Below are positions 309 through 64,000 of a DNA stretch of 64,000 nt, in pieces. Every line of letters starts with the position of its first letter. Within the stretch, counting starts at the first letter, position 1. Both the position numbers and the translations under genes were made by a program. Source of the stretch: Desulfurellaceae bacterium bin18 (GTDB lineage Bacteria > Desulfobacterota > Binatia > Bin18). The stretch spans positions 1-64,000 of the forward strand of contig MPMI01000008.1 of the NCBI GenBank assembly GCA_002238415.1. The letters are read 5' to 3'. The notes below the pieces were generated by a model that saw only the letters and a list, made by a program, of their open reading frames with translations, was not told the DNA's origin and did no database searches.

Positions 309-2591
309 CTACGCCCCGTTCTTCTCCAGAATCGCCTTTGCCACTCTGGCTGGAGACATGGGCAACTCGGTCATCCGCACCCCGGTTGCTCGGTAAATGG
401 CATTGGCAATCGCAGCGGGTGGTGGGATGATCGGCACCTCACCGACGCCACGAATACCGATGGGATGGCCGGGATTGGCCACCTCGACCAGAATGGTTTC
501 GATCATAGGCAGGTCGAGACAGGTGGGCATGCGATAATCCAGAAAGCCGGTATTCCGCATGGTCCCATCCTCAGCGTAAAAATACTCTTCGTTGAGTGCC
601 CAGCCGACACCTTGGGCCACGCCGCCCTGAATCTGCCCTTCGACATAGCTGGGATGGACGGCTTTGCCGACATCCTGGGCGGCAGTGTAGCGGAGAATAT
701 CGACTTTCCCGGTCTCGGGATCGATTTCCACATCAACCACGTGAGCGGCAAAGGCGGGCCCCACCCCGCGCGGCCGGACAGACGCGCGACCCATAACCGG
801 ACCACCGGCGCGGGGAAACTTGGGAGCGATTTCCTTCAAGCTCAGGGATTCGTGGCCATTAGTCAGACAGGAGAGCACCCCGTCCTGGTAGGTGACGTCT
901 TCCGGCTTGACCTTCCAGACCGTGGCCGCCCGCTGCTTCAGTTGTCCGACGGCGTCTTGGGCCGCTTCATACACGGCCAGACCGGTAGCGAAGGTCACCC
1001 GACTGCCGCCGGTCGTATCGGTATGGCCAATGGATTCCGTGTCTGCGACAACCGGGTGCATGTCTTCCGACCTGAGTCCCAGGACCTCGGCCGCAATCAT
1101 GGCGCACGAGGCCCGGCTGCCGCCGATATCGGGCGAGCCGGTCACCACATTGGCGCTGCCATCAGTGTTAATGCTCACCGTGGCGCTCGACTGAAACGCG
1201 GCATTAAACCAAAAACCGGTTGCCACTCCCCGCCCTCGGAGTTTTCCGTTTGCACTCTGGGGCGGTGGCGACTGATAGTGCTCGCTGTTGTGAATGGCCT
1301 CAACCGTTTCGAGATAGCCGATCCGTTTGAATTGAGGCCCGGCGGGTTGGGCCGTTCCTTCTTTGGCGCCATTGATCCGTCGTATTTCGAGCGGATCAAG
1401 CCCCAGCCTTTCCGCCATCTCGTCAAGAATCGTCTCGGCCGCCAGAGCGGGGTTGGTGGCACCGGGAGCGCGGTAAGCACACGTCTTGGGCTTGTTCAGC
1501 ACAACGTCGTAGCCGTCGATCTGAAAATTTTCCAAGTCGTACGGAGCCAGAACGGTCATACAACCAGCCGCCACCGGTGAACCGGGAAAGGCGCCCGCTT
1601 CAAACGAGAGCTGGAGTTCGGCTGCCGTGATTTTGCCCTCAAGGTTGACGCCGATTTTGGCACGGATATGCGAGCCTGGCGTCGGGCCGGTTGCGCGCAG
1701 CACTTCGCTCCGAGACATGACCATTTTCACGGGTCGGCCGGTCAGTTTGGACAGGAGCAGGGCCACCGGTTCCAAATACACCGTGGTCTTACCGCCAAAG
1801 CCCCCCCCGATCTCGGCCGGCACGACTTTGATATCACCTGGGTTTATTTGCAGCATCGTGCCGCACAACTCGCGCACGGCAAACGGCCCCTGAGTGCTGA
1901 CCCAGACCGTTGCCTTATCGTCCTGGTTATACTGCGCCACCGCGTTATGGGGCTCGATATAGCCCTGATGGACCATGCTGGTATCAAACTCGCGTTCGAT
2001 CACCATCTCGGCCGCGGCAAACCCGGCAGCGAGATCGCCCCGCGAGAACTGAATATGGTTGGCGATATTGGTTTCTGTGTCATCCCCTGCATCGACTCCG
2101 GCGGTCCGCAGGTCGGGGTGGAGAATAACTGCGTTGTCCCGCATGGCTTCGAGCACATTCTGGACAAAAGGCAGCGGTTCGTACTCCACTCTGATGAGCT
2201 TGAGCGCCTCCTCGGCAACATGTGGGCTGGTCGCCGCGACGGCTGCGACCGCATGACCATCGTACAGGACTTTGTCGCGGGCCATAATGTTCGCAGCCAG
2301 GTGACGCGGGTTGACAAAGTTCTCGCCGATTTGCAGCATCCCCGGTTCAATCTCAGGAAAGTCGGCACCGGTAACGACCGCTTTGACGCCTGGCAGGGCC
2401 TGCGCCTCGGAAGTCTCGATGGATTTGATCCGCGCGTGGGGGCGTGGACTGCGCAGCACTTTCCCGTGCAGGAGACCCGGCAGGGTAATATCCGCTCCAT
2501 AGCGGGCGCGTCCCGTGACTTTATCAACCCCGTCGTGCCGAATGGGACGGGTGCCAATCACCTTGAACTGATGCTCGTGTTGGGCTTCCAT
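309..2591 (-). CDS. Molybdopterin-binding large subunit, xanthine dehydrogenase/CoxL family (copy 2)
   Basis: A 760-residue large subunit of the xanthine dehydrogenase family, which carries the molybdenum-cytosine-dinucleotide cofactor and oxidises a C-H bond of an aromatic, aldehyde or similar substrate. Visible family signatures are GGGFGGK near residue 264 (cofactor binding), AYRAPG near 375 and GVGEVPIIPPPAAIANAI near 715, which includes the expected active-site Glu. The AYRAPG form is not the AYxCSFR signature of true form-I CO dehydrogenase, so a CO substrate is unlikely. Start chosen at ATG 2591 because GGGAGGTGG lies just upstream; an in-frame upstream ATG at 2645 lacks such a site. 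By eye about three quarters of residues match the neighbouring copy at 2975-5245. The substrate is unknown. Confidence 0.93.
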   Translation of the reverse strand: MEAQHEHQFKVIGTRPIRHDGVDKVTGRARYGADITLPGLLHGKVLRSPRPHARIKSIETSEAQALPGVKAVVTGADFPEIEPGMLQIGENFVNPRHLAANIMARDKVLYDGHAVAAVAATSPHVAEEALKLIRVEYEPLPFVQNVLEAMRDNAVILHPDLRTAGVDAGDDTETNIANHIQFSRGDLAAGFAAAEMVIEREFDTSMVHQGYIEPHNAVAQYNQDDKATVWVSTQGPFAVRELCGTMLQINPGDIKVVPAEIGGGFGGKTTVYLEPVALLLSKLTGRPVKMVMSRSEVLRATGPTPGSHIRAKIGVNLEGKITAAELQLSFEAGAFPGSPVAAGCMTVLAPYDLENFQIDGYDVVLNKPKTCAYRAPGATNPALAAETILDEMAERLGLDPLEIRRINGAKEGTAQPAGPQFKRIGYLETVEAIHNSEHYQSPPPQSANGKLRGRGVATGFWFNAAFQSSATVSINTDGSANVVTGSPDIGGSRASCAMIAAEVLGLRSEDMHPVVADTESIGHTDTTGGSRVTFATGLAVYEAAQDAVGQLKQRAATVWKVKPEDVTYQDGVLSCLTNGHESLSLKEIAPKFPRAGGPVMGRASVRPRGVGPAFAAHVVDVEIDPETGKVDILRYTAAQDVGKAVHPSYVEGQIQGGVAQGVGWALNEEYFYAEDGTMRNTGFLDYRMPTCLDLPMIETILVEVANPGHPIGIRGVGEVPIIPPPAAIANAIYRATGVRMTELPMSPARVAKAILEKNGA

Positions 2592-2664
2592 GTCCACCTC
2601 CCGTACACAAAAACGGGGAAGAGCTAACCGCCCTTCCCCGTTCAAAAGTTATCGTAATAGCGGT

Positions 2665-2928
2665 TTACCCGCCTCCAATAGCGGGCACAAAATGGACCTC
2701 GCCTTCATCTGGAACCGATTCGGTCAACCCTTCCGTCCCGATCTCTCCGTTGATCGAAACCGCAATGGAGCCGACCAAGTCCCCGTCCTCAACCACGCGA
2801 CTCCGAAAACCAGGGAACTGGCGTTCAAGGTCTTCGACTATTTCCCCCACTGTTTTCCCGGTGGCAATCGTGCGATCTTTGCCACCGGTTAATTTCCGCA
2901 GGAGCGAAGGGATATAGACGGTTGCCAT
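2665..2928 (-). CDS. MoaD/ThiS-family sulfur-carrier-like protein
   Basis: An 87-residue ubiquitin-fold protein starting MATVYIPSLLRKLTGG and ending in the diglycine tail IGGG typical of sulfur carriers activated by MoeB-type adenylation. MoaD is the small subunit of molybdopterin synthase and donates the two dithiolene sulfurs. The gene sits between two molybdenum hydroxylase large-subunit genes on the same strand, 46 bp after one and 73 bp before the other, so a role in supplying or tuning pterin cofactor for these enzymes is likely by context. The partner MoaE is not in the window. A thiocarboxylate donor for another pathway is possible. Confidence 0.85.
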   Translation of the reverse strand: MATVYIPSLLRKLTGGKDRTIATGKTVGEIVEDLERQFPGFRSRVVEDGDLVGSIAVSINGEIGTEGLTESVPDEGEVHFVPAIGGG

Positions 2929-2974
2929 AGGGCGCGGGCTAGGGGCACGTCGAGACGTGCCCCTCTTTGGGTCG

Positions 2975-5245
2975 CTATCCGTTTTTCTCCAGGATCGCCT
3001 TGGTCACGCGTGGGGGTGACATCGGCAGGTCCAACATGCGCACGCCGGTTGCGTTATAGATCGCATTGGCGATGGCAGCCGGCGGCGGAACAATCGGCAC
3101 TTCGCCCACACCCCGCACACCCACCGGGTGACCGGGGTTCGGGACCTCAACCAGGACGGTTTCAATCATGGGCAAATCCAGACAGGTCGGCATCCGATAA
3201 TCCAGGAAGCCAGTGTTCTGCATACATCCGTCTTCGCCGTAGACGTATTCTTCGTTGAGCGCCCAGCCGACTCCCTGGGCCACGCCACCCTGCATCTGAC
3301 CTTCCACGTAGCTGGGATGGACGGCCTTCCCGACGTCCTGGACAGCCGTGTAGCGCAGCACGTCCACTTTGCCGGTTTCCTCGTCCACGGCCACGTCAAC
3401 CACATGGGTGGCGAAACCCGGCCCCACACCGCGTGGGTTGACGGATGCGCGACCCGCGACCGGCCCGCCGGTCCGCGGCAGCTTGCCGGCGAGCTCCTTG
3501 AGGCTCAGGGATTCGTTGCCGTTCTCAGTACAACTGAAGACACCGTCCTGAAACACGACTTTATCCGCATCGACCTTCCAGGATTTGGCTGCTCGCTCCT
3601 TGAGTTGCTTGAGCACATCTTGGGCGGCTTCATACACGGCCGTCCCGGTGGCAAAGGTGACCCGGCTGCCACCGGTCATATCCGTATGCCCAATGGACTC
3701 GGTGTCGGCCACGACCGGGTGGACTTCTTCGGCCTTGAGGCCGAGCACCTCCGCGGCAATCATGGCGCAGGATGTCCGCGTGCCACCAATATCGGTCGAA
3801 CCGGTGACCACATTGGCGGTACCGTCGCTGTTAATGGCCACGGTCGCGCTGGACTGGAAACCGGCGTTAAACCAGAAGCCCGAGGCCAGTCCCCGACCAA
3901 CCCGGCGGCCTTCGACCTGAGGCAGCTCGGACTTGAAGTGGTCGCTGTCCTTGGCGGCTTCGAGCGTTTCAAGGAAGCCGATCTGGCCAAATTTCGGACC
4001 CGCGGGCTGCGCCGTGCCCTCTTTGGCGCCGTTGATGCGACGGAACTCCAGAGGATCAATCCCCAACTTTTCCGCGAGTTCGTCGATCACCGTCTCTGAT
4101 CCCATGGCCGCGTTGGTTGCGCCCGGAGCCCGGTAGGCCGCGGTCTTGGGCTTGTTGACCAACACGTCGTAGCCGTCGATTTGGAGATTCTCGATGTCAT
4201 ACGGAGCAATAACGCACATACAGCCCGCGCCGACCGGAGAGCCCGGAAAGCCGCCGGCTTCATAGGCCATCCAGACTTCGGCAGCCGTAATCTTGCCGTC
4301 CTTGTCCGCTCCCATCTTCACCTTGATATGCGAACCAGGAGTCGGGCCGGTGGCCTTGAGCACATCGGCCCGGCTCATGACCATCTTGACCGGCTTGCCG
4401 GTATGCTTCGACAGCATGAGTGCAACCGGCTCGTAGTAAATAGGAATCTTACCCCCAAAACCGCCACCGATCTCGGCGGGAATAACCTTGATCTTGCTCG
4501 GTGGCATGTCGAGCACAAAAGCCGTTTGATCCCGGGCCGTAAACGCGCCCTGGGTGCTTACCCAGATCGTACTCTGCCCGTCCGAACTGTACTGCGCCAC
4601 GGCGTTGTGCGGCTCAATATAGCCCTGGTGGACCATGGAGGTGTCAAACTCTCGCTCAATGACCACTTCAGCGGCGGCAAAGCCCTCGGCCAAGTCTCCA
4701 CGCGCGAACTGAAGGTGATTGGCGACGTTCGTATCCGTGGGCTCGCCATCCTCGCCCTTGCCCAAGCCGGGGATCAGGATCGGGGCCTTATCATCCATGG
4801 CCTCAACAACGCTCTGCACATGCGGCAGGACTTCATAGTCAACCTTGATCAGCTTGGCGGCTTCTTCGGCGATATGCGGGCTGGTGGCGGCGACTGCGGC
4901 CACCACATGGCCGTCATACAGAACCTTGTCTCGGGCGATGCAGTTCAGAGACAGATGTTGCGGGTTGATCGGCAGTTCACCCATTGCCGCCATACCCGGC
5001 CCAATCTCCGGAAAGTCCTGCGCGGTGAGGACCGCTTTCACCCCCGGCACAGCCTTGGCTGCCGCCGTGTCGATCGATTTGATTCTGGCGTGGGCGTGCG
5101 GGCTGCGCAGGACCTTGCCGTGCAAGAGCCCAGCCAGACTGACATCGGCGCCATACTGGGCCCGACCAGTGACTTTATCGACCCCATCGTGCCGAATCGG
5201 ACGTGTCCCGATGACCTTGAATTTATGTTCTTGTTGGGTAGCCAT
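2975..5245 (-). CDS. Molybdopterin-binding large subunit, xanthine dehydrogenase/CoxL family (copy 1)
   Basis: A 756-residue molybdenum hydroxylase large subunit. It has the two-domain layout of the family, with GGGFGGK near residue 260, AYRAPG near 372 and the C-terminal GVGEVPIVPPPAAIANAI block near 713. ATG at 5245 is preceded by GGGAGGTAAAC, and the gene begins two bases after the stop of the [2Fe-2S] subunit, so the two are almost certainly cotranslated. It is a tandem paralogue of the gene at 309-2591, so the operon can build two enzymes sharing small and medium subunits or a mixed complex. The substrate cannot be read from the sequence; AYRAPG is closer to xanthine or hydroxybenzoyl-CoA type enzymes than to CO dehydrogenase. 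Confidence 0.94.
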   Translation of the reverse strand: MATQQEHKFKVIGTRPIRHDGVDKVTGRAQYGADVSLAGLLHGKVLRSPHAHARIKSIDTAAAKAVPGVKAVLTAQDFPEIGPGMAAMGELPINPQHLSLNCIARDKVLYDGHVVAAVAATSPHIAEEAAKLIKVDYEVLPHVQSVVEAMDDKAPILIPGLGKGEDGEPTDTNVANHLQFARGDLAEGFAAAEVVIEREFDTSMVHQGYIEPHNAVAQYSSDGQSTIWVSTQGAFTARDQTAFVLDMPPSKIKVIPAEIGGGFGGKIPIYYEPVALMLSKHTGKPVKMVMSRADVLKATGPTPGSHIKVKMGADKDGKITAAEVWMAYEAGGFPGSPVGAGCMCVIAPYDIENLQIDGYDVLVNKPKTAAYRAPGATNAAMGSETVIDELAEKLGIDPLEFRRINGAKEGTAQPAGPKFGQIGFLETLEAAKDSDHFKSELPQVEGRRVGRGLASGFWFNAGFQSSATVAINSDGTANVVTGSTDIGGTRTSCAMIAAEVLGLKAEEVHPVVADTESIGHTDMTGGSRVTFATGTAVYEAAQDVLKQLKERAAKSWKVDADKVVFQDGVFSCTENGNESLSLKELAGKLPRTGGPVAGRASVNPRGVGPGFATHVVDVAVDEETGKVDVLRYTAVQDVGKAVHPSYVEGQMQGGVAQGVGWALNEEYVYGEDGCMQNTGFLDYRMPTCLDLPMIETVLVEVPNPGHPVGVRGVGEVPIVPPPAAIANAIYNATGVRMLDLPMSPPRVTKAILEKNG

Positions 5246-5247
5246 GT

Positions 5248-5724
5248 TTACCTCCCTTGCATTTCAGCGGCGGCGTCTTGCACCGCTCTCACGATCTTGT
5301 CATAGCCCGTGCAGCGACAGAGATTGCCAGCTAGGGCATAGCGAATTTCATGCTCAGTCGGGTTGGGGTTCCGGTCCAACAGCGCTTTGGACGTGACTAA
5401 AAAGCCGGGGGTGCAGATGCCGCACTGGAGGGCCGCATGTTCCAGGAATTTCTTCTGGAGCGGATGCAGGGTATCTCCGTCGGCCAGGCCTTCAACCGTG
5501 GTGATGTCTTTGCCCTCGGCTTCAACACCGAGCACCAGACAGGAGTCGGTGGGGCGTCCATCCATAATGACGCTGCACGCACCGCAGTCGCCCGTCAGAC
5601 AGCCTTCTTTCGTGCCGGTATAGCCCACGACATCCCGCAGCACTTCAAGCAGGCTCTGACGTGGTTCACACAGGAACTCGGTCTCTTCCCCATTAACTGT
5701 TGTTTGTACGTGTACTTTCTTCAT
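5248..5724 (-). CDS. [2Fe-2S] small subunit of molybdenum hydroxylase (CoxS/XdhC-type iron-sulfur subunit)
   Basis: A 158-residue electron-transfer subunit with two [2Fe-2S] clusters. The plant-type N-terminal cluster is seen as GCLTGDCGACSVIMDG (about residues 41-56) plus a later Cys in DSCLVLG. The C-terminal helical cluster is seen as CGICTPGF and NLCRCTGY. Electrons pass from the molybdenum site through these clusters to FAD on the medium subunit. ATG at 5724 has GGCAGGA upstream. It lies between the FAD subunit (23-bp gap) and the first large subunit (2-bp gap), the usual M-S-L order of this family. Confidence 0.95.
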   Translation of the reverse strand: MKKVHVQTTVNGEETEFLCEPRQSLLEVLRDVVGYTGTKEGCLTGDCGACSVIMDGRPTDSCLVLGVEAEGKDITTVEGLADGDTLHPLQKKFLEHAALQCGICTPGFLVTSKALLDRNPNPTEHEIRYALAGNLCRCTGYDKIVRAVQDAAAEMQGR

Positions 5725-5747
5725 GTATGTCCTGCCTTCCCAATAAC

Positions 5748-6617
5748 CTAGCGTGCCCGCGCCCGCGCGGCTGCTTCTTTCAAAGTGCGGCGGGTGAGAA
5801 CACCGACCAGATGCGTCCGAAATTCTGCCGTGCCGCGCATATCACTAATGGGTGAGGCGGCTTGCTGAGCGAGCTGTGCAGCAGCCTCGATAGCGGCATC
5901 GTCCAGCGTTTTCCCGACCAGAGAATCGCCCGCTTCTTTGGCCAACAGTGGCCGGGCGGCAACCGCACCCAGACCGATGCGGGCCGCAGTGCAGGTGTCG
6001 CCATCAAGCGCCACACACGAGCCCACGCCAACGACAGCGATATCCATCTCGTTCCGAGGGATAAAACGTTGGTAACAGTCAGACGCCTGCCCCTGTGGGG
6101 CGGGAATCTGGAACGCCACCAGTAACTCGTTCGGGGCGAGTACCGTCTGGCCGGGCGCGGTGACAAAGTCTTCCGCTGCCACCTCCCGCGTCCCGTTGGG
6201 TCCGGCGATATGACAGACCGCACCCAAAGCAATCAGCGCCGGCGTCGTATCTGCGGCGGGGGAGCCATTGCAGACGTTTCCACCTACCGAGGCGCGCGCC
6301 AGGATCTGATCGGAGCCGATCAGCCCGGCAGCCTCAACCAGCCCCGGATAGTGCTGCTGCACCGTCGCGTCAGCAATAATATCGCAGCACGCCCGCGCGG
6401 CTCCAAGTTGGAGTCCGTTTTGCGCGTCAAAAGACAATGCCTGGAGTTCTGGGATCTTTTTGGCGTCTATCACCTGTCCCGGTTGTCGAACACCGGCACG
6501 CATCTGGATAATCAGATCCGTACCGCCTGCCAGCATACGCCCATTTTCGCCCGCTGCCGCCAAAACACTAATGGCCTGATCGAGCGAAGTCGGCGCTTCA
6601 TAATTCAGTTCGTGCAA
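5748..6617 (-). CDS. FAD-binding medium subunit of molybdenum hydroxylase (CoxM family)
   Basis: A 289-residue PCMH-type FAD subunit. MLAGGTDLI (about residues 29-37) and ASVGGNVCNGSPAAD (about 106-120) are the two pyrophosphate/flavin-binding loops of the family. There is no 4Fe-4S insert of the 4-hydroxybenzoyl-CoA reductase beta type. The start appears to be TTG at 6617 preceded by AAAGGAGGCGACC; no ATG fits better. It heads the M-S-L gene block. Palindromic element copy 2 lies about 95 bp upstream, between this gene and the MocA-like gene. Confidence 0.93.
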   Translation of the reverse strand: MHELNYEAPTSLDQAISVLAAAGENGRMLAGGTDLIIQMRAGVRQPGQVIDAKKIPELQALSFDAQNGLQLGAARACCDIIADATVQQHYPGLVEAAGLIGSDQILARASVGGNVCNGSPAADTTPALIALGAVCHIAGPNGTREVAAEDFVTAPGQTVLAPNELLVAFQIPAPQGQASDCYQRFIPRNEMDIAVVGVGSCVALDGDTCTAARIGLGAVAARPLLAKEAGDSLVGKTLDDAAIEAAAQLAQQAASPISDMRGTAEFRTHLVGVLTRRTLKEAAARARAR

Positions 6618-6710
6618 GGTCGCCTCCTTTTCCGATTTTGATTCGTCTTCCTGCCTTTCTGCAGGCTCCTAGATTGCTATAGAAAAGCGCCAGGAAGTGC
6701 AAGGGTTCCA

Positions 6711-6760
6711 AAGAGTAAACGTGTCAACAGCTTTGTATCTAGGGGGACACGTTTACTCTT
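6711..6760. repeat. Palindromic element copy 2
   Basis: Fifteen-base arms AAGAGTAAACGTGTC (6711-6725) and their exact complement (6746-6760) flank a 20-bp centre AACAGCTTTGTATCTAGGGG. It is intergenic, between the MocA-like gene and the FAD subunit. The centre resembles that of copy 3 rather than the TCCAAT type. Confidence 0.88.
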
Positions 6761-6774
6761 TCAGACGTTCTGTC

Positions 6775-7374
6775 TTATCTTTTTCGTGCGCCAACCCACT
6801 GGGCGTACTCTTGGGGCGTATCAATATCGGCGCGAATACCGGGATCGTCGAGCGCAAGCTCACACACCCGCTCCGGGTCTTTGCGGACCACCACCTTTGC
6901 CCCTCTATCCAGCGGGGCCGCCAGAAGCTCTCCGTAGACACCCTTTGAGAACAGCACCGGATGGCCGCGGCGGCCCTGGTAGGACGCGATAATAATAGGA
7001 AGGGGATCGGTCGCAAACGACGCCATGAGGGCCTGTATGGTCTCAGCTTGGATAAGGGGGTGATCAACCAGATTGACCACTGCGGCCTCGCTCTCGGGCG
7101 ACAGGGTCTGAATCCCCACTTGCAGAGAAGAGAGTTGGCCCAGTCGATACTGCGGATTCAGCACGGTCCGAAGAGCGGGATGCTTCGGGACGACCGCCCG
7201 AATCGGTTCGGCGTGCTCATGCGCGCCGAGTACGACGATGAGTTCATCGACTCCGGCGCTCAAAAAGCTGGTGCAAATGTTTTCAATAAAGGTTTGTCCC
7301 TGGTAGTCGAGCAGCGCTTTGGGTGATCCCATCCGCCGGGACTCACCTGCGGCCAGGATAATTCCAGAAATCAT
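6775..7374 (-). CDS. mocA: Molybdenum cofactor nucleotidyltransferase (MocA family)
   Basis: A 199-residue nucleotidyltransferase with the N-terminal signature LAAGESRRMGSPKALLDYQG (residues 7-26) that binds CTP, and VVNLVDHPLI (about 97-106) for metal binding. MocA attaches CMP to molybdopterin to make the MCD cofactor used by xanthine-dehydrogenase-family enzymes, which fits its place between XdhC and the hydroxylase subunits. MobA (GTP) is the close alternative, but the genomic context favours MocA. The ATG at 7374 lies in an exact 13-bp tandem duplication (7364-7389) that offers a second, out-of-frame ATG at 7387. No strong ribosome site is visible. Confidence 0.88.
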   Translation of the reverse strand: MISGIILAAGESRRMGSPKALLDYQGQTFIENICTSFLSAGVDELIVVLGAHEHAEPIRAVVPKHPALRTVLNPQYRLGQLSSLQVGIQTLSPESEAAVVNLVDHPLIQAETIQALMASFATDPLPIIIASYQGRRGHPVLFSKGVYGELLAAPLDRGAKVVVRKDPERVCELALDDPGIRADIDTPQEYAQWVGARKR

Positions 7375-7415
7375 ACCCAGAAATCATACCGCGTGTCGGT
7401 TGAGGGCAAGAGTGG

Positions 7416-8576
7416 TTAGGGCGTAAATTTGAGCGGTCCGTCAGGCCGGACTTTGGCGGCCAGTGAGAGCGTATCCGGCGGGCCCTTGCGCCGGGCGCGA
7501 ACGATCTCGGCCGTAATGGCGACGGCAATCTCCGCCGGTGTTTCTGCCGCAATATCAAGTCCCAACGGGGTATGTACGCGGGCGACGTCTTCAGGGCTAT
7601 AGCCCTGTTCAACCAGGCGTTCGAGGGTCCTTTTTGAGCGCCGCCGGCTGCCGATCATGCCAATATAGGCCGGATTCTTCTTGAGTGCGGCCTTGACCGA
7701 GGTCTCGTCCCACACATGGCCGCGCGTGACCACAACGACAAAGGTCTGCCGGTTGATATTCAGGCTGTTCAGGACATCCTCAAACGGTCCGACTCGAACC
7801 TCGGCGGCACGAGGAAAGCGTTCCCGATTGGCAAAGGCCCAGCGATCATCCACCACAACGGTATGGAAGCCGAGCATCGCCCCTATTTCGCACAGCGGCT
7901 GCGCAATATGGCCGGCCCCAACAATGAGCAAGGTCTGCACCCCGGTCTGCACGTCAACGAAAACACGCGGCCAATCCTCTTTTCGGACAAGCGCGTCTTC
8001 CCGGACTTCACCCTGGGGTGACACGGCAAACAGTTGGGGTTTGCCTGAGGAGACAGATGAGGAAAATGTCTCGACTGTTTCTGCGGTGATTGAGACGGAC
8101 GGAGTCAGAGACGCCCCGCCGTTTCCATCCTGGCCAAGAGACAGGCAGCTCTTTGTTCCGGGTCGGACGCCGCTGAGCGAGTCGAGTGCCGTGACCAGAG
8201 CCGCGGGCTGGTGAGCACGCGTCGCCTCGGCCAAGGTCTGTGCTAATGCGCGGTGTTCCTCCGGCTGCCAGAGGTCAAGCGCGACATCCATCACCCCACC
8301 ACAGACCTGGATCTCGTCCTGATCAAAGTCGCCGGTTAGATCAACCTGCACAATACGCGGGGGGAGTTTCTGGTCCAGCACCGGATAGGCCCGGCGGAGC
8401 ACCTCCCCTTCGCCACAGCCCCCGCCAATAGTCCCAAACGGCTGGCCTTCGGGAGGCACGACCATTTTCGCTCCGACCTCACGCGGCACAGAGCCGCGCG
8501 TGCGGATAATCGTCGCCAACACAAAAGGCTTGCCAGCCGCCAAAATTTCTTCAGCACGTTCCCAGAGATCTTCCAC
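7416..8576 (-). CDS. XdhC/CoxF-family molybdenum hydroxylase maturation protein
   Basis: A 386-residue protein with the XdhC N-terminal segment VLATIIRTRGSVPREVGAKM (about 20-39) and a C-terminal Rossmann domain beginning LLIVGAGHIAQPL (about 216-228). XdhC proteins bind the sulfurated MCD cofactor and load it into the large subunit. The start is GTG at 8576; no in-frame ATG precedes the conserved region. It lies 41 bp upstream of mocA. It has the full two-domain form rather than the short single-domain form. Confidence 0.9.
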   Translation of the reverse strand: MEDLWERAEEILAAGKPFVLATIIRTRGSVPREVGAKMVVPPEGQPFGTIGGGCGEGEVLRRAYPVLDQKLPPRIVQVDLTGDFDQDEIQVCGGVMDVALDLWQPEEHRALAQTLAEATRAHQPAALVTALDSLSGVRPGTKSCLSLGQDGNGGASLTPSVSITAETVETFSSSVSSGKPQLFAVSPQGEVREDALVRKEDWPRVFVDVQTGVQTLLIVGAGHIAQPLCEIGAMLGFHTVVVDDRWAFANRERFPRAAEVRVGPFEDVLNSLNINRQTFVVVVTRGHVWDETSVKAALKKNPAYIGMIGSRRRSKRTLERLVEQGYSPEDVARVHTPLGLDIAAETPAEIAVAITAEIVRARRKGPPDTLSLAAKVRPDGPLKFTP

Positions 8577-60496: not shown

Positions 60497-61420
60497 ATGG
60501 ATATGCAAGCCTCGACCCATAGCTCGGCCCTGTCGGCGGTTATTCTGAGCGGTGGAAAAAGTTCGCGTATGGGCAGGCCGAAGGCGCTGCTGCCCTTTGA
60601 CGACAAGCCGCTCATCGCTCATCTGGTTGAGCGCCTGTCCCGACGCTTTGCCGATATCGTTGTGGTCGCCGCGCCGGACCAGACCCTGCCGTCCCTGCCG
60701 GTCACGCTGGTCCACGATGCCGTGGCCCATCAGGGGCCGGTCGGAGGCATATACTACGGCCTGCGAGCAATCCGCGGAACGGCGGCCTTTGTCACGTCGT
60801 GCGATGTGCCCTTTCTCCAGTTGTCCTTTATCGACTATCTCGTCTCGCAGCTTGATCATAACGGTCGTGGCTATGATGTGGTCGTTCCCGTTTGGCAAGA
60901 CCGGCTTCAGCCGCTGCACGCCGTGTATCGCCGGCGCGTCGTCCCCCATTTACAAGAACAGCTCGCCACCCAACGCCTCCGCCCGGTCTATTTGTATGAC
61001 ACCGTGCCAACCCGAAAAGTGTCGGCGGCGGAGATCAAACGCTTTGACCCCGAGGGGCTGAGTTTTCTCAATATGAACACCCAGGAAGACTATCAAGCCG
61101 CCCTGGCCCACTGGCGGACGTTGTCGGCGCCCATTTCCTGCACGGTTGAGTTATTCGGCGTTGCGCGCCTCACCGCACATACCCCACGCGTCCCGCTGGT
61201 CCTTTCGGCGGAGGCAACGCTCGGGGACGCGCTGACTGTCTTGGGAACGGAATGTCCCGCCCTCCTGGGTTCAGTGCTGTCTGCGGATGATGCGGGGTAC
61301 ACCAGCTTACGGAACGGATATACCTGCAATATCAATGGGAAAGACTTTGTTCGAGACGCACACACCCGTCTCCGGGCGGGTGACAGCCTGTTGATCTTGT
61401 CGAGCGATGCGGGCGGATAA
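60497..61420 (+). CDS. MobA-MoaD fusion (molybdenum cofactor guanylyltransferase plus sulfur carrier domain)
   Basis: A 307-residue two-domain protein. Residues about 13-205 are MobA: AVILSGGKSSRMGRPKALLP (about 14-33) for GTP binding and FVTSCDVPFLQ (about 97-107) for metal binding. Residues about 210-307 form a MoaD/ThiS-like ubiquitin fold ending SSDAGG, the free diglycine of sulfur carriers. MobA adds GMP to the pterin and MoaD supplies its sulfurs, so both jobs are on one chain. It is three bases upstream of an AOR gene and probably serves its cofactor. The diglycine end argues the domain is active. Confidence 0.88.
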   Translation: MDMQASTHSSALSAVILSGGKSSRMGRPKALLPFDDKPLIAHLVERLSRRFADIVVVAAPDQTLPSLPVTLVHDAVAHQGPVGGIYYGLRAIRGTAAFVTSCDVPFLQLSFIDYLVSQLDHNGRGYDVVVPVWQDRLQPLHAVYRRRVVPHLQEQLATQRLRPVYLYDTVPTRKVSAAEIKRFDPEGLSFLNMNTQEDYQAALAHWRTLSAPISCTVELFGVARLTAHTPRVPLVLSAEATLGDALTVLGTECPALLGSVLSADDAGYTSLRNGYTCNINGKDFVRDAHTRLRAGDSLLILSSDAGG

Positions 61421-61423
61421 ACC

Positions 61424-63226
61424 ATGTACGGATTCCACGGCCGTCTGCTGCGTATAGACCTCACGACGCAGTCGTACACCTGGCAGGATATCGAAGCGTC
61501 CCGTCTCCGGGCGGTGCTGGGCGGTGTGGGCCTGGGGGCGTCTTTGCTGTACGAGTACGCCCCCCCTCGCGTGGAGCCGTTCTCGGCCGATAATCCGCTC
61601 ATTTTCACCAGCGCTCCACTGGTCGGAACGGGCCTGACCACCACCGCCAAGTATGCCGTTGTCACCAAGTCGCCCCTGACCGGCTTTATTGCGGATTCCC
61701 TCTCTTCCAGTTTTTTTGCCCTGGAGCTCAAGCGGGTCGGGGCCGATGCGCTGGTGATTACCGGTGCGGCCGAACACCCTACCTATCTGCTGATAACGGA
61801 CACCGGAGTCGAGTTCCGAACGGCAGCCCATCTGGCGGGACTGAGCGCCCAGGAAACTGAAGAGCGTATCCGGTACGCGGTTCGCACGGCCCAGGGGGCG
61901 GAGGTCCGGGTGGCCGCCATCGGGCGGGCGGGGGAAAATCTCGTGCGGTTTGCGACCCTCAGCAATGAGGGCCGGCACGCCGGACGGGGTGGCGTCGGAG
62001 CGGTGTTCGGCGCCAAGAAACTCAAGGCCGTTGCCCTGCGGGGGCAGCGCCGGGTGGCAGTGGCCGATACAGAGGCGGTGGAAAAAATAGCCATCACATT
62101 ACGTGAGCGGAGTGTCGGGCCGCACACGGCAAAATACCGCGAGATTGGAACGGTGGCGAATCTGGCAGTCTTCGACCGGCTAGGCAGTCTGCCGACCTAT
62201 AATTTTCAGAACACTCCGTTCGCCCAGGCGGAAGCACTCAGCGGGGAATCTTTTATCACCAATGGTTTCAGTCAGACGCACGGCTGCGCCGCATGCACAA
62301 TTCGATGTGAGCGCCTCTTTCAATCCCTGAGCGGCGAGGCCCAACGACTTGAGTATGAAACCCTCTTTGCGTTGGGTCCGCTGTGCGGCATTGAGGAGCC
62401 GGACGCCGTGCTGCGGGCCGCCCGGCTGTGCGACCAGCACGGGCTGGACACCATTAGTACCGGCGGCACTCTCGCCTGGGCGGCGGAATGCGCGGACAAG
62501 GGTCTCTGGCCCGAGCTGCACGCGACGGGGCTGTCCTTTGGCAATGCGGAGGCAATGCTCGCCCTGATCCCGGACATTGCCCACAGACGAGGAGTGGGGG
62601 CGGTCCTGGCCGAGGGCTCACGGCGGGCGGCCACCCACATCGGGGCCGAAGCGGAGAGCTTCGCCATGCAGGTCAAAGGCATGGAGCTGCCGGGCTACGA
62701 GCCGCGCAGCCTCAAGACCATGGCGCTCGGTCTGGCGGTCAGTCCACGCGGGGCCTGCCATAACCGTTCGGGGGCGTATGAGGCGGACTTCTCGGGCCAA
62801 GTTGATCGTCTGCAAGCCGATGCCGGCCGTGGGGCGCTGGTTGCCGCGTCCGAAGACTTCTCCGCGGTCCTGGATTCCCTGATTGTGTGTAAGTTTTTAC
62901 GTAAGTGTTTCGATGATTTTTACGTCGAAGCAGCCCAGCTTATGAGCGCGGTAACGGGGTGGGATTACACCGCTGCCAATCTCATGCGGGTTGGCGAACG
63001 TATCAACACGCTCAAGAAATTGTTTAATATGCGCGAGGGCTGGCGGCCTGAGGACGACTGGCTGCCAGCCCGCCTCTTAACCGAGCCGTTGTCGAGTGGC
63101 GTTGTTCAGGGAGTGAGCCTGACCCCGGATGAGCTCCGCCTGATGATTCAAAGCTATTATGCCGCCCGAGGCTGGAACGAAGAGGGATTGGTCAGGGAGG
63201 AGAAAAAACGGGAATTAGGGCTCTGA
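61424..63226 (+). CDS. Aldehyde:ferredoxin oxidoreductase family protein
   Basis: A 600-residue tungsten- or molybdenum-pterin enzyme. LGGVGLGASLLYEY (about 31-44) opens the pterin-binding domain, SNEGRHAGRGGVGAVFGAKK (about 182-201) follows, HGCAACTIRCERLF (about 286-299) gives three of the four cluster Cys, and LIVCKFLRKCFDDF (about 486-499) the fourth. It oxidises aldehydes or aromatic acids with ferredoxin-like acceptors. It begins three bases after the MobA-MoaD gene, so cofactor supply and enzyme are coexpressed. The exact substrate is open. Confidence 0.92.
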   Translation: MYGFHGRLLRIDLTTQSYTWQDIEASRLRAVLGGVGLGASLLYEYAPPRVEPFSADNPLIFTSAPLVGTGLTTTAKYAVVTKSPLTGFIADSLSSSFFALELKRVGADALVITGAAEHPTYLLITDTGVEFRTAAHLAGLSAQETEERIRYAVRTAQGAEVRVAAIGRAGENLVRFATLSNEGRHAGRGGVGAVFGAKKLKAVALRGQRRVAVADTEAVEKIAITLRERSVGPHTAKYREIGTVANLAVFDRLGSLPTYNFQNTPFAQAEALSGESFITNGFSQTHGCAACTIRCERLFQSLSGEAQRLEYETLFALGPLCGIEEPDAVLRAARLCDQHGLDTISTGGTLAWAAECADKGLWPELHATGLSFGNAEAMLALIPDIAHRRGVGAVLAEGSRRAATHIGAEAESFAMQVKGMELPGYEPRSLKTMALGLAVSPRGACHNRSGAYEADFSGQVDRLQADAGRGALVAASEDFSAVLDSLIVCKFLRKCFDDFYVEAAQLMSAVTGWDYTAANLMRVGERINTLKKLFNMREGWRPEDDWLPARLLTEPLSSGVVQGVSLTPDELRLMIQSYYAARGWNEEGLVREEKKRELGL

Positions 63227-63231
63227 AGCCA

Positions 63232-63459
63232 ATGTCAAAGGCAGAAAGACTCAAGGAAGAAATCGGCTGGCTTAAAGTTGTTTTTGGTATTTTAGTTGCC
63301 ATTGATGTCTCCAGGATCGCGTGGCTCGCTCAGAATGTGAGCCGTCCAGCTTCCTTGCTCGTCTCGGTTTGTATTTTTGCGGTTGCCTGCGTTACTCTCG
63401 GGATTATATGGGTCAACCGTACTGCGTATCGAAAAATTGACGAACTGGAGGAACTGTAA
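63232..63459 (+). CDS. Small two-helix membrane protein
   Basis: A 75-residue protein: charged N-terminus (KAERLKEEIGWLK), hydrophobic VVFGILVAIDVSRIAWLAQ (about 15-33), hydrophobic LLVSVCIFAVACVTLGIIW (about 42-60), and charged end YRKIDELEEL. It starts 5 bp after AOR. Its stop overlaps the start of the next small gene (TAATG). Function unknown. Confidence 0.75.
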   Translation: MSKAERLKEEIGWLKVVFGILVAIDVSRIAWLAQNVSRPASLLVSVCIFAVACVTLGIIWVNRTAYRKIDELEEL

Positions 63460-63581: not shown

Positions 63582-63632
63582 TTGCGTGACCGAGCAAGAC
63601 GATTATTCACGGAGCCAAGGAGTGCACTCTTC

Positions 63633-64000
63633 ATGTACGAATCAAAAAATGTCTTAGGCGAAAAACTCCAGGTGTGCAGTTCGCGGCCGTTAACCGGTTT
63701 TTATCGGGACGGCTGCTGCAATACCGGCAGGGAAGACGTCGGCCTGCATACCGTATGTACCCAGGTCACCGAAGAATTTTTGGCCTTCTCCAAGGCAAAG
63801 GGCAACGACCTGAGCACGCCCCGCCCGGAGCTTGGCTTTGACGGACTCCAGCCCGGAGACTGTTGGTGTCTGTGTGCGCTGCGCTGGAAAGAAGCCTACG
63901 AGGCCGGGGCCCCACCCGTAGTGATACTGGCTTCTACCCACGAGGCGACCCTCGAACATATTCCCCTGGCGCTGCTGAAAGAACACGCCCGGGATCTGCA
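63633..64000 (+). CDS. DUF2237 family protein (partial, runs off the window)
   Basis: The visible 122 residues begin MYESKNVLGEKLQVCSSRPL and contain GFYRDGCCNTGREDVGLHTV (about 22-41), TPRPELGFDGLQPGDCWCLC (about 62-81) and ATLEHIPLALLKEHA. These are the DUF2237 signature with many conserved Cys. Function unknown, possibly metal binding. ATG 63633 with AAGGAG ten bases upstream. The last few residues lie past the window edge. Confidence 0.92.
   Translation, partial: MYESKNVLGEKLQVCSSRPLTGFYRDGCCNTGREDVGLHTVCTQVTEEFLAFSKAKGNDLSTPRPELGFDGLQPGDCWCLCALRWKEAYEAGAPPVVILASTHEATLEHIPLALLKEHARDL

What the first reader, a model, noticed from the sequence alone, without database searches (positions are those of the whole stretch)
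60497..63226. Natural MobA-MoaD fusion directly upstream of an aldehyde:ferredoxin oxidoreductase
One chain joins a guanylyltransferase and a sulfur carrier with a free diglycine end, three bases before AOR. The fusion couples the first (sulfur) and last (GMP) parts of cofactor assembly. AOR enzymes generally use a bis-pterin tungsten cofactor without nucleotide, so a MobA domain here is unexpected and may signal a bis-MGD-type or other modified cofactor.
Basis: partly seen in the sequence, partly recalled or inferred. Interest (0 to 1): 0.7.

Follow-up and report, generated by a model that had tools for sequence, protein, structure and literature searches.

The report
MobA–MoaD fusion beside AOR and FDH
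A protein in a group of uncultured soil bacteria joins two tungsten/molybdenum-cofactor-making tools in one chain; it is conserved and looks functional, but the nucleotide-adding half is best explained by the formate dehydrogenase genes next door, not by an unusual cofactor in the neighbouring aldehyde oxidoreductase.

Summary
Window 60497–61420 encodes 307 aa: a MobA domain (Pfam E 1e-39) joined to a MoaD/ThiS-like beta-grasp domain ending in a free Gly-Gly. AOR follows after 3 bases. The fusion occurs in 39 of 148 genomes of its class (three families, Candidatus Binatia) and in Nonomuraea (Actinomycetota). All 34 fusions aligned keep the MobA residues checked and end DAGG. In 143 class genomes the fusion and this AOR clade almost always co-occur (36 of 37 AOR genomes).

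The next genes encode a formate dehydrogenase of the bis-MGD family. FDH genes of two unrelated types sit beside the fusion in 24 of 39 genomes and in Nonomuraea. The fusion is also the only MobA found in this genome, so it must supply its bis-MGD-type enzymes anyway. Thermomicrobium has the unfused arrangement: free MoaD then AOR, with no MobA beside it.

Best reading: the cell's MobA joined to the AOR-linked sulfur carrier (MoaD/"WorX") in a tungsten AOR–FDH gene module, perhaps for formaldehyde→formate→CO2. This domain pair was not found described in the open-access papers searched. It is a new variant of known Moco fusions.

The parts
60497..61420 (+). MobA-MoaD fusion protein, 307 aa (stop included in the coordinates)
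60533..61114 (+). MobA (GTP:molybdopterin guanylyltransferase-like) domain, about residues 13-206; motifs LSGGKSSRMGRPK, QGPVGG, SCDVPF, NMNT
   Evidence: PF12804 E 1.3e-39; TIGR02665 E 3e-27 but below its cut-off; fold match to MobA 3ngw/1e5k
61127..61417 (+). MoaD/ThiS-like beta-grasp sulfur-carrier domain, residues 211-307, C-terminal DAGG
   Evidence: PF02597 over cut-off alone; AF2 pLDDT 88, fold match SAMP1/MoaD; DAGG in 34/34
61424..63226 (+). aldehyde:ferredoxin oxidoreductase (AOR/WorL), 600 aa; Fe-S Cys 288/291/295/489, E312, H446 and DxxGLD kept
   Evidence: PF02730 and PF01314; 1aor E 1e-113; motif check
63232..63459 (+). 75-aa possible membrane protein, poorly conserved, probably not part of the module
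63582..64000 (+). DUF2237 protein (runs 4 bases past the window end), conserved neighbour in the genus, role unknown

Best explanation
The protein is this cell's MobA guanylyltransferase fused to the AOR-linked sulfur carrier (MoaD, also called WorX), in a tungsten-enzyme module that pairs an AOR with a formate dehydrogenase. Proposed working: an E1-like MoeB/MoeZ enzyme thiocarboxylates the C-terminal Gly307; the MoaD domain docks on MoaE and gives sulfur to cPMP to make pterin dithiolene; metal is inserted. The plain bis-pterin form goes to AOR. For FDH (and the cell's other DMSO-reductase-family enzymes) the MobA domain adds GMP to give bis-MGD. AOR would oxidise an aldehyde, most likely formaldehyde, to formate, and the FDH would oxidise formate to CO2. 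Shown: fusion, motifs, folds, gene linkage and co-occurrence, no second MobA detected. Inferred: thiocarboxylation, GTP specificity, tungsten in both enzymes, formaldehyde as substrate, any physical channelling.
For: Fusion in 39/148 class genomes; AOR clade in 37/143; both in 36. In nearly all adjacent cases the AOR start lies -4 to +3 bases from the fusion stop. FDH genes beside the fusion in 24 of 39 genomes, of two unrelated types: NAD-type NuoE/NuoF/FdhA (TIGR01591 over cut-off) and selenocysteine FDH-N with FdhE. In f88 all 8 loci read fusion-AOR-NuoE-NuoF-FdhA on one strand. Nonomuraea (another phylum) has fusion-AOR-FdhA-NuoE-NuoF. TupABC-like tungstate transporter genes follow AOR in four genomes. 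No other MobA in G000; the second hit is a MocA-like protein beside XdhC. The only MoaE is itself fused to another MoaD. T. roseum: free homologous MoaD then AOR. A second AOR of the same genome (C39) has its own free MoaD and no MobA beside it.
Against: TIGR02665 (MobA) is below its curated cut-off (97 vs 152 bits), though no class genome and only one control reaches it. In 15 of 39 genomes no FDH was seen beside the fusion; several of these contigs are short, but G311, G313, G319, G331 and G332 have room. Three fusions with room have no adjacent AOR (G211, G331, G332). The AOR clade differs from characterised AORs at the phosphate/Mg loop (K76 for R76, SLSSS for NSGG), so its cofactor is not settled by sequence. 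No experiment exists.
Confidence: 0.72

Rival explanations
1. One reading: the MobA half modifies the AOR cofactor, so this AOR carries a dinucleotide (bis-MGD or similar) instead of bis-pterin.
For: Tight fusion-AOR coupling and near-perfect co-occurrence; the AOR clade has an altered phosphate/Mg loop and K76; some fusion loci have no FDH beside them.
Against: A bis-MGD-family FDH is the neighbour in 24/39 genomes and Nonomuraea. The fusion is the only MobA found, so it is needed for other enzymes. The same loop changes occur in T. roseum AOR, which has MoaD but no MobA beside it. AOR-family enzymes are reported to hold two MPT without nucleotide (PMC6365974).
Confidence: 0.05
2. Plain operon economy: mobA and moaD happened to fuse by loss of a stop codon between neighbouring genes; each half works alone and the fusion has no special mechanism. 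(This can be true together with the best explanation; it denies only physical cooperation of the halves.)
For: Linkers vary in length and sequence between families (alignment, lengths 274-406 aa); unfused MoaD-AOR exists; other Moco protein fusions are common (MobA-MobB and MoaC-MobA models; MoaD-MoaE in this genome).
Against: The fusion is kept without a split in the 34 sequences aligned, across families and in another phylum, and mostly as the only MobA. This may be common descent only.
Confidence: 0.55
3. The MoaD half is a ubiquitin-like modifier or a regulatory tag rather than a sulfur donor for pterin.
For: Best structural matches are the archaeal modifiers SAMP1; NCBIfam SAMP1 weakly matched; the MoaE in this genome already carries its own MoaD.
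Against: The genomic setting is mostly cofactor or tungsten-enzyme genes; homologous free MoaD precedes AOR in T. roseum; AOR-linked MoaD/WorX is predicted to act in pterin synthesis (PMC1779556, PMC13328260). SAMPs themselves also act in sulfur transfer (general knowledge).
Confidence: 0.08

Closest known systems
AOR-linked MoaD / WorX (Iyer et al. 2006, PMC1779556; Putumbaka et al. 2026, PMC13328260)
   Same: A MoaD/ThiS-like protein encoded directly beside AOR, predicted to serve tungsten-pterin synthesis; in one case (Azoarcus) MoaD is reported fused to AOR.
   Different: Here MoaD is fused to the C-terminus of MobA; neither paper describes a MobA fusion in the passages read or searched.
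Fused Moco proteins: MobA-MobB (PRK14489/14490), MoaC-MobA (PRK14500), MoaD-MoaE, MoeA-MobB
   Same: Two steps of cofactor synthesis on one chain; MobA as one partner in two of them.
   Different: Different partner: the sulfur carrier MoaD with a free C-terminus. MoaD-MoaE joins direct partners; MobA and MoaD act at opposite ends of the pathway.
Tungsten FDH maturation in Methylorubrum extorquens (PMC13197769)
   Same: An FDH with W-bis-MGD whose maturation is reported to need MobA; the FDH beside the window fusion belongs to the same bis-MGD enzyme family.
   Different: No AOR and no MobA-MoaD fusion described there; the metal of the Binatia FDH is not known.
Thermomicrobium roseum MoaD-AOR pair
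   Same: AOR 51% identical; MoaD directly upstream, homologous to the fusion's C-terminal domain.
   Different: MoaD is free; no MobA or FDH annotated within about 9 kb.

Membership tests
MobA (molybdenum cofactor guanylyltransferase) | MobA fold and NTP-transferase domain | tested here: met
   PF12804 E 1.3e-39; Z 21-24 to MobA structures
MobA (molybdenum cofactor guanylyltransferase) | nucleotide-binding/catalytic motifs GGxSxRMGxxK, GP, CDxPF, NxN | tested here: met
   M25-G26, K29, G80-P81, D103, F106 and N194 kept in 34 of 34 fusions
MobA (molybdenum cofactor guanylyltransferase) | curated equivalog score TIGR02665 | tested here: inconclusive
   Best hit of the genome but 97 of 152 bits; 0 of 143 class genomes reach it and only one control does
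MobA (molybdenum cofactor guanylyltransferase) | uses GTP on Mo/W-pterin | not testable with these tools
   LSGG (not LAAG as in the MocA-like protein beside XdhC) suggests GTP; the rule is recalled, not tested
MoaD/ThiS sulfur carrier | beta-grasp fold | tested here: met
   AF2 pLDDT 88; SAMP1 and MoaD structures are the best matches
MoaD/ThiS sulfur carrier | C-terminal Gly-Gly | tested here: met
   DAGG at the end of 34/34 fusions
MoaD/ThiS sulfur carrier | thiocarboxylation and sulfur transfer through MoaE | not testable with these tools
   one MoaE in the genome, fused to another MoaD
AOR family (WorL) | AFOR_N and AFOR_C domains, 4Fe-4S cysteines, DxxGLD, catalytic Glu/His | tested here: met
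AOR family (WorL) | bis-pterin cofactor without nucleotide, tungsten | not testable with these tools
   literature on the family only (PMC6365974); TupABC-like genes beside AOR in four relatives fit tungsten
Neighbour: molybdo/tungsto FDH (FdhF/FdsA type) | curated equivalog TIGR01591 | tested here: met
   759 bits vs cut-off 666

The most novel reading that the evidence does not exclude
The fusion is a two-headed assembly factor that holds the first sulfur step and the last nucleotide step together and divides one tungsten-pterin supply between AOR (bis-pterin) and FDH (bis-MGD). AOR and FDH then form a tungsten route formaldehyde to formate to CO2 sharing one NuoEF NADH module, used by uncultured methylotroph-like soil bacteria and some actinomycetes.
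Probability: 0.2. Interest if true: 0.75.

Novelty: new variant of a known kind. Interest (0 to 1): 0.5.

Why it matters
It adds a MobA–MoaD fusion to the known Moco protein fusions and shows it is a conserved feature of a bacterial lineage, apparently as the only MobA in the window's genome. The conserved pairing of one AOR clade with formate dehydrogenases of two unrelated types, and in four cases with a tungstate transporter, gives a testable function (C1 oxidation) to an uncharacterised AOR clade. If the two halves work together, it would be a handle on how a cell divides one pterin pool between nucleotide-free and dinucleotide enzymes.

Tried and rejected
1) AOR with a dinucleotide cofactor: rejected as first choice once the FDH neighbour and the absence of another MobA were seen. 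2) Frameshift or misassembly: rejected, same fusion in 39 genomes. 3) Fusion dedicated to AOR only: not favoured, as no other MobA is seen in G000 and only G323 has a clear second one. 4) Haloarchaeal AORs beside FDH looked like a deep unfused version of the module, but the tree does not group them with this clade, they lack the Fe-S cysteines, and the 95-aa protein beside one of them is not MoaD by inspection; used only as a side observation. 5) Moco/W riboswitch: no Rfam match other than a tRNA in the window. 6) Plasmid search with the MoaD domain alone found nothing. 7) Nonomuraea could not be searched for a second MobA (record too large). 8) Papers: no description of a MobA–MoaD fusion found, open-access library only. 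9) The MobA-like hit at window 6775-7374 is MocA-like (LAAG, beside XdhC), not a second MobA. 10) The full-length structure search listed only MobA-type folds, so the C-terminal domain was folded alone.

Full report
WHAT IS THERE. ORF 60497–61420 (+) gives 307 aa and ORF 61424–63226 (+) gives 600 aa, with three bases between. The first is a MobA-like NTP transferase (PF12804, E 1.3e-39) joined to a ThiS/MoaD domain (PF02597, over its cut-off when scanned alone). AlphaFold gives a MobA fold for residues 12–209 (Z 24.2 to 3ngw, 21.4 to E. coli MobA) and, for the C-terminal domain alone, a beta-grasp fold at pLDDT 88 whose best matches are SAMP1 and the MoaD subunits of MPT synthases. The second ORF is a complete AOR, closest in the PDB to P. 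furiosus AOR (E 1.4e-113). It keeps the four Fe-S cysteines, E312, H446 and the DxxGLD pterin motif.

HOW WIDESPREAD. A scan of GTDB species genomes found the fusion in ten Binatia/'Deltaproteobacteria' MAGs. A class-wide search found it in 39 of 148 genomes, in three families (f1, f88, f89); a 198-genome sample of the phylum showed none outside the class. Outside the phylum it is in Nonomuraea gerenzanensis (281 aa, ends SADAGG), and a related orphan copy with an altered C-terminus is on a Rhodococcus opacus plasmid. In 34 aligned fusions the C-terminal DAGG is invariant, and M25, G26, K29, D74, G80, P81, D103, F106 and N194 of the MobA half are invariant.

LINK TO AOR. This AOR clade occurs in 37 of 143 class genomes and 36 of these have the fusion; the exception (G301) is an AOR starting at base 30 of its contig (Fisher p 4e-29, not corrected for kinship). 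Where they are adjacent, the AOR start lies 3 bases after the fusion stop in 16 loci, overlaps it (-4) in 8 and is 2 bases away in 4: the pair is very probably co-translated. In G211 and G331 the AOR is on another contig, and G210 has it 2.4 kb away. Thermomicrobium roseum has the same AOR type (51%) with a free MoaD three bases upstream; this MoaD is homologous to the fusion's C-terminal domain (hhalign E 8.6e-13, same AGG end). So MoaD–AOR exists without MobA.

LINK TO FORMATE DEHYDROGENASE. Beyond the window end the contig carries FdhA (64185–67010, –) and a NuoE–NuoF-type subunit (66938–68626, –). FdhA is TIGR01591 formate dehydrogenase alpha over its cut-off. In family f88 all eight loci read fusion–AOR–NuoE–NuoF–FdhA on one strand. 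In G209, G210 and G212 the order is NuoF–fusion–AOR–FdhA. In G318 FDH precedes the fusion. In four f89 genomes (G314, G320, G323, G325) another kind of FDH lies directly upstream: FdnGHI with FdhE, the alpha subunit having an in-frame TGA at the selenocysteine position (NQARI*HSSS); only part of this cluster is on the contig in G314 and G320, and a G330 fragment fits too. In total FDH genes were seen beside the fusion in 24 of 39 genomes, by my count. Four other f89 genomes have TupABC-like tungstate transporter genes after AOR (TupA-like E 2e-62, under its cut-off). Nonomuraea has fusion–AOR–FdhA–NuoE–NuoF. Two unrelated FDH types at the same place point to shared function rather than to chance synteny.

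THE ONLY MobA. In the window's genome (96% complete) TIGR02665 finds the fusion (3e-27), then a MocA-like protein beside XdhC (2.6e-10) and GlmU, KdsB and IspD-type enzymes. The genome has a dozen PF00384 hits, most of them of a type that normally carries bis-MGD. Class-wide, genomes without the fusion mostly carry a stand-alone MobA of about 200–260 aa, while those with it have one MobA hit, or a weak second one near 1e-15; only G323 has a clear second MobA. The MobA half therefore has customers enough without AOR.

INTERPRETATION. With the FDH in view and no other MobA, that inference is not needed. It is not excluded: the AOR clade has K76 for R76 and SLSSS for NSGG near the phosphate/Mg site (the role of those residues in P. 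furiosus AOR is from general knowledge). But T. roseum AOR, without MobA beside it, shares these. AOR-family enzymes are described as carrying two MPT per W (PMC6365974). The best reading is a MobA fused to the AOR-linked sulfur carrier (MoaD of Iyer et al., PMC1779556; 'WorX' of PMC13328260). Binatota are predicted methylotrophs that oxidise formaldehyde to formate and CO2 (PMC8262859), so AOR plus FDH as a formaldehyde-to-CO2 route is a reasonable but untested idea. Whether the two halves cooperate physically is open; simple gene fusion without a special mechanism is about as likely as not.

CONTROL WITHIN THE GENOME. A second AOR (contig C39) has a free 81-aa MoaD ending PPVAGG-SE and an FAD protein beside it, with no MobA. 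The only MoaE is a MoaD–MoaE fusion on C31 beside a MoaB-like gene.

NOVELTY. Fusions among Moco proteins are common, and MoaD beside AOR is known; MobA–MoaD was not found described in the open-access literature searched. I rate it a new variant of a known kind.

Noticed in passing
G000 contig C21 64185-68626 (just past the window end; L048): NAD-type formate dehydrogenase FdhA plus NuoE/NuoF-type subunit, convergent with the fusion-AOR pair; changes the reading of the finding.
   Followed up: yes
L161-L166 (haloarchaeal plasmids): Six AOR-like proteins lack all four Fe-S cysteines of AOR; four of them lie beside formate dehydrogenase genes, one also beside MobA and YqeC. Possible cluster-less AOR relatives.
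   Followed up: partly
L141 2585-5866, L133 8724-12023: FDH-N alpha subunit with an in-frame TGA (NQARI*HSSS, read directly in L141), a likely selenocysteine FDH, followed by FdhE and the fusion.
   Followed up: partly
L123 11977-14592; also L121, L126, L148: TupABC-like tungstate ABC transporter genes directly after AOR; a TupA relative is on contig C70 of the window's genome.
   Followed up: partly
G000 contig C31 2845-3561 (-), L055: MoaD-MoaE fusion (238 aa), the only MoaE of the genome, beside a MoaB-like gene.
   Followed up: partly
window 309-8576 (-): Xanthine dehydrogenase/CO dehydrogenase-like large, small and medium subunits with a MocA-like cytidylyltransferase and XdhC.
   Followed up: no
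L158 9920-10870: Rhodococcus opacus plasmid: orphan MobA-MoaD relative among transposases, no AOR found nearby, Gly-Gly no longer at the C-terminus; probably decaying.
   Followed up: partly
L160 6522-15716: Azospirillum plasmid AOR with ferredoxin-like protein and MoaD next to a complex I/hydrogenase-like membrane module.
   Followed up: no
window 63582-64000 and on: DUF2237 protein conserved between AOR and FDH in the genus; function unknown.
   Followed up: no
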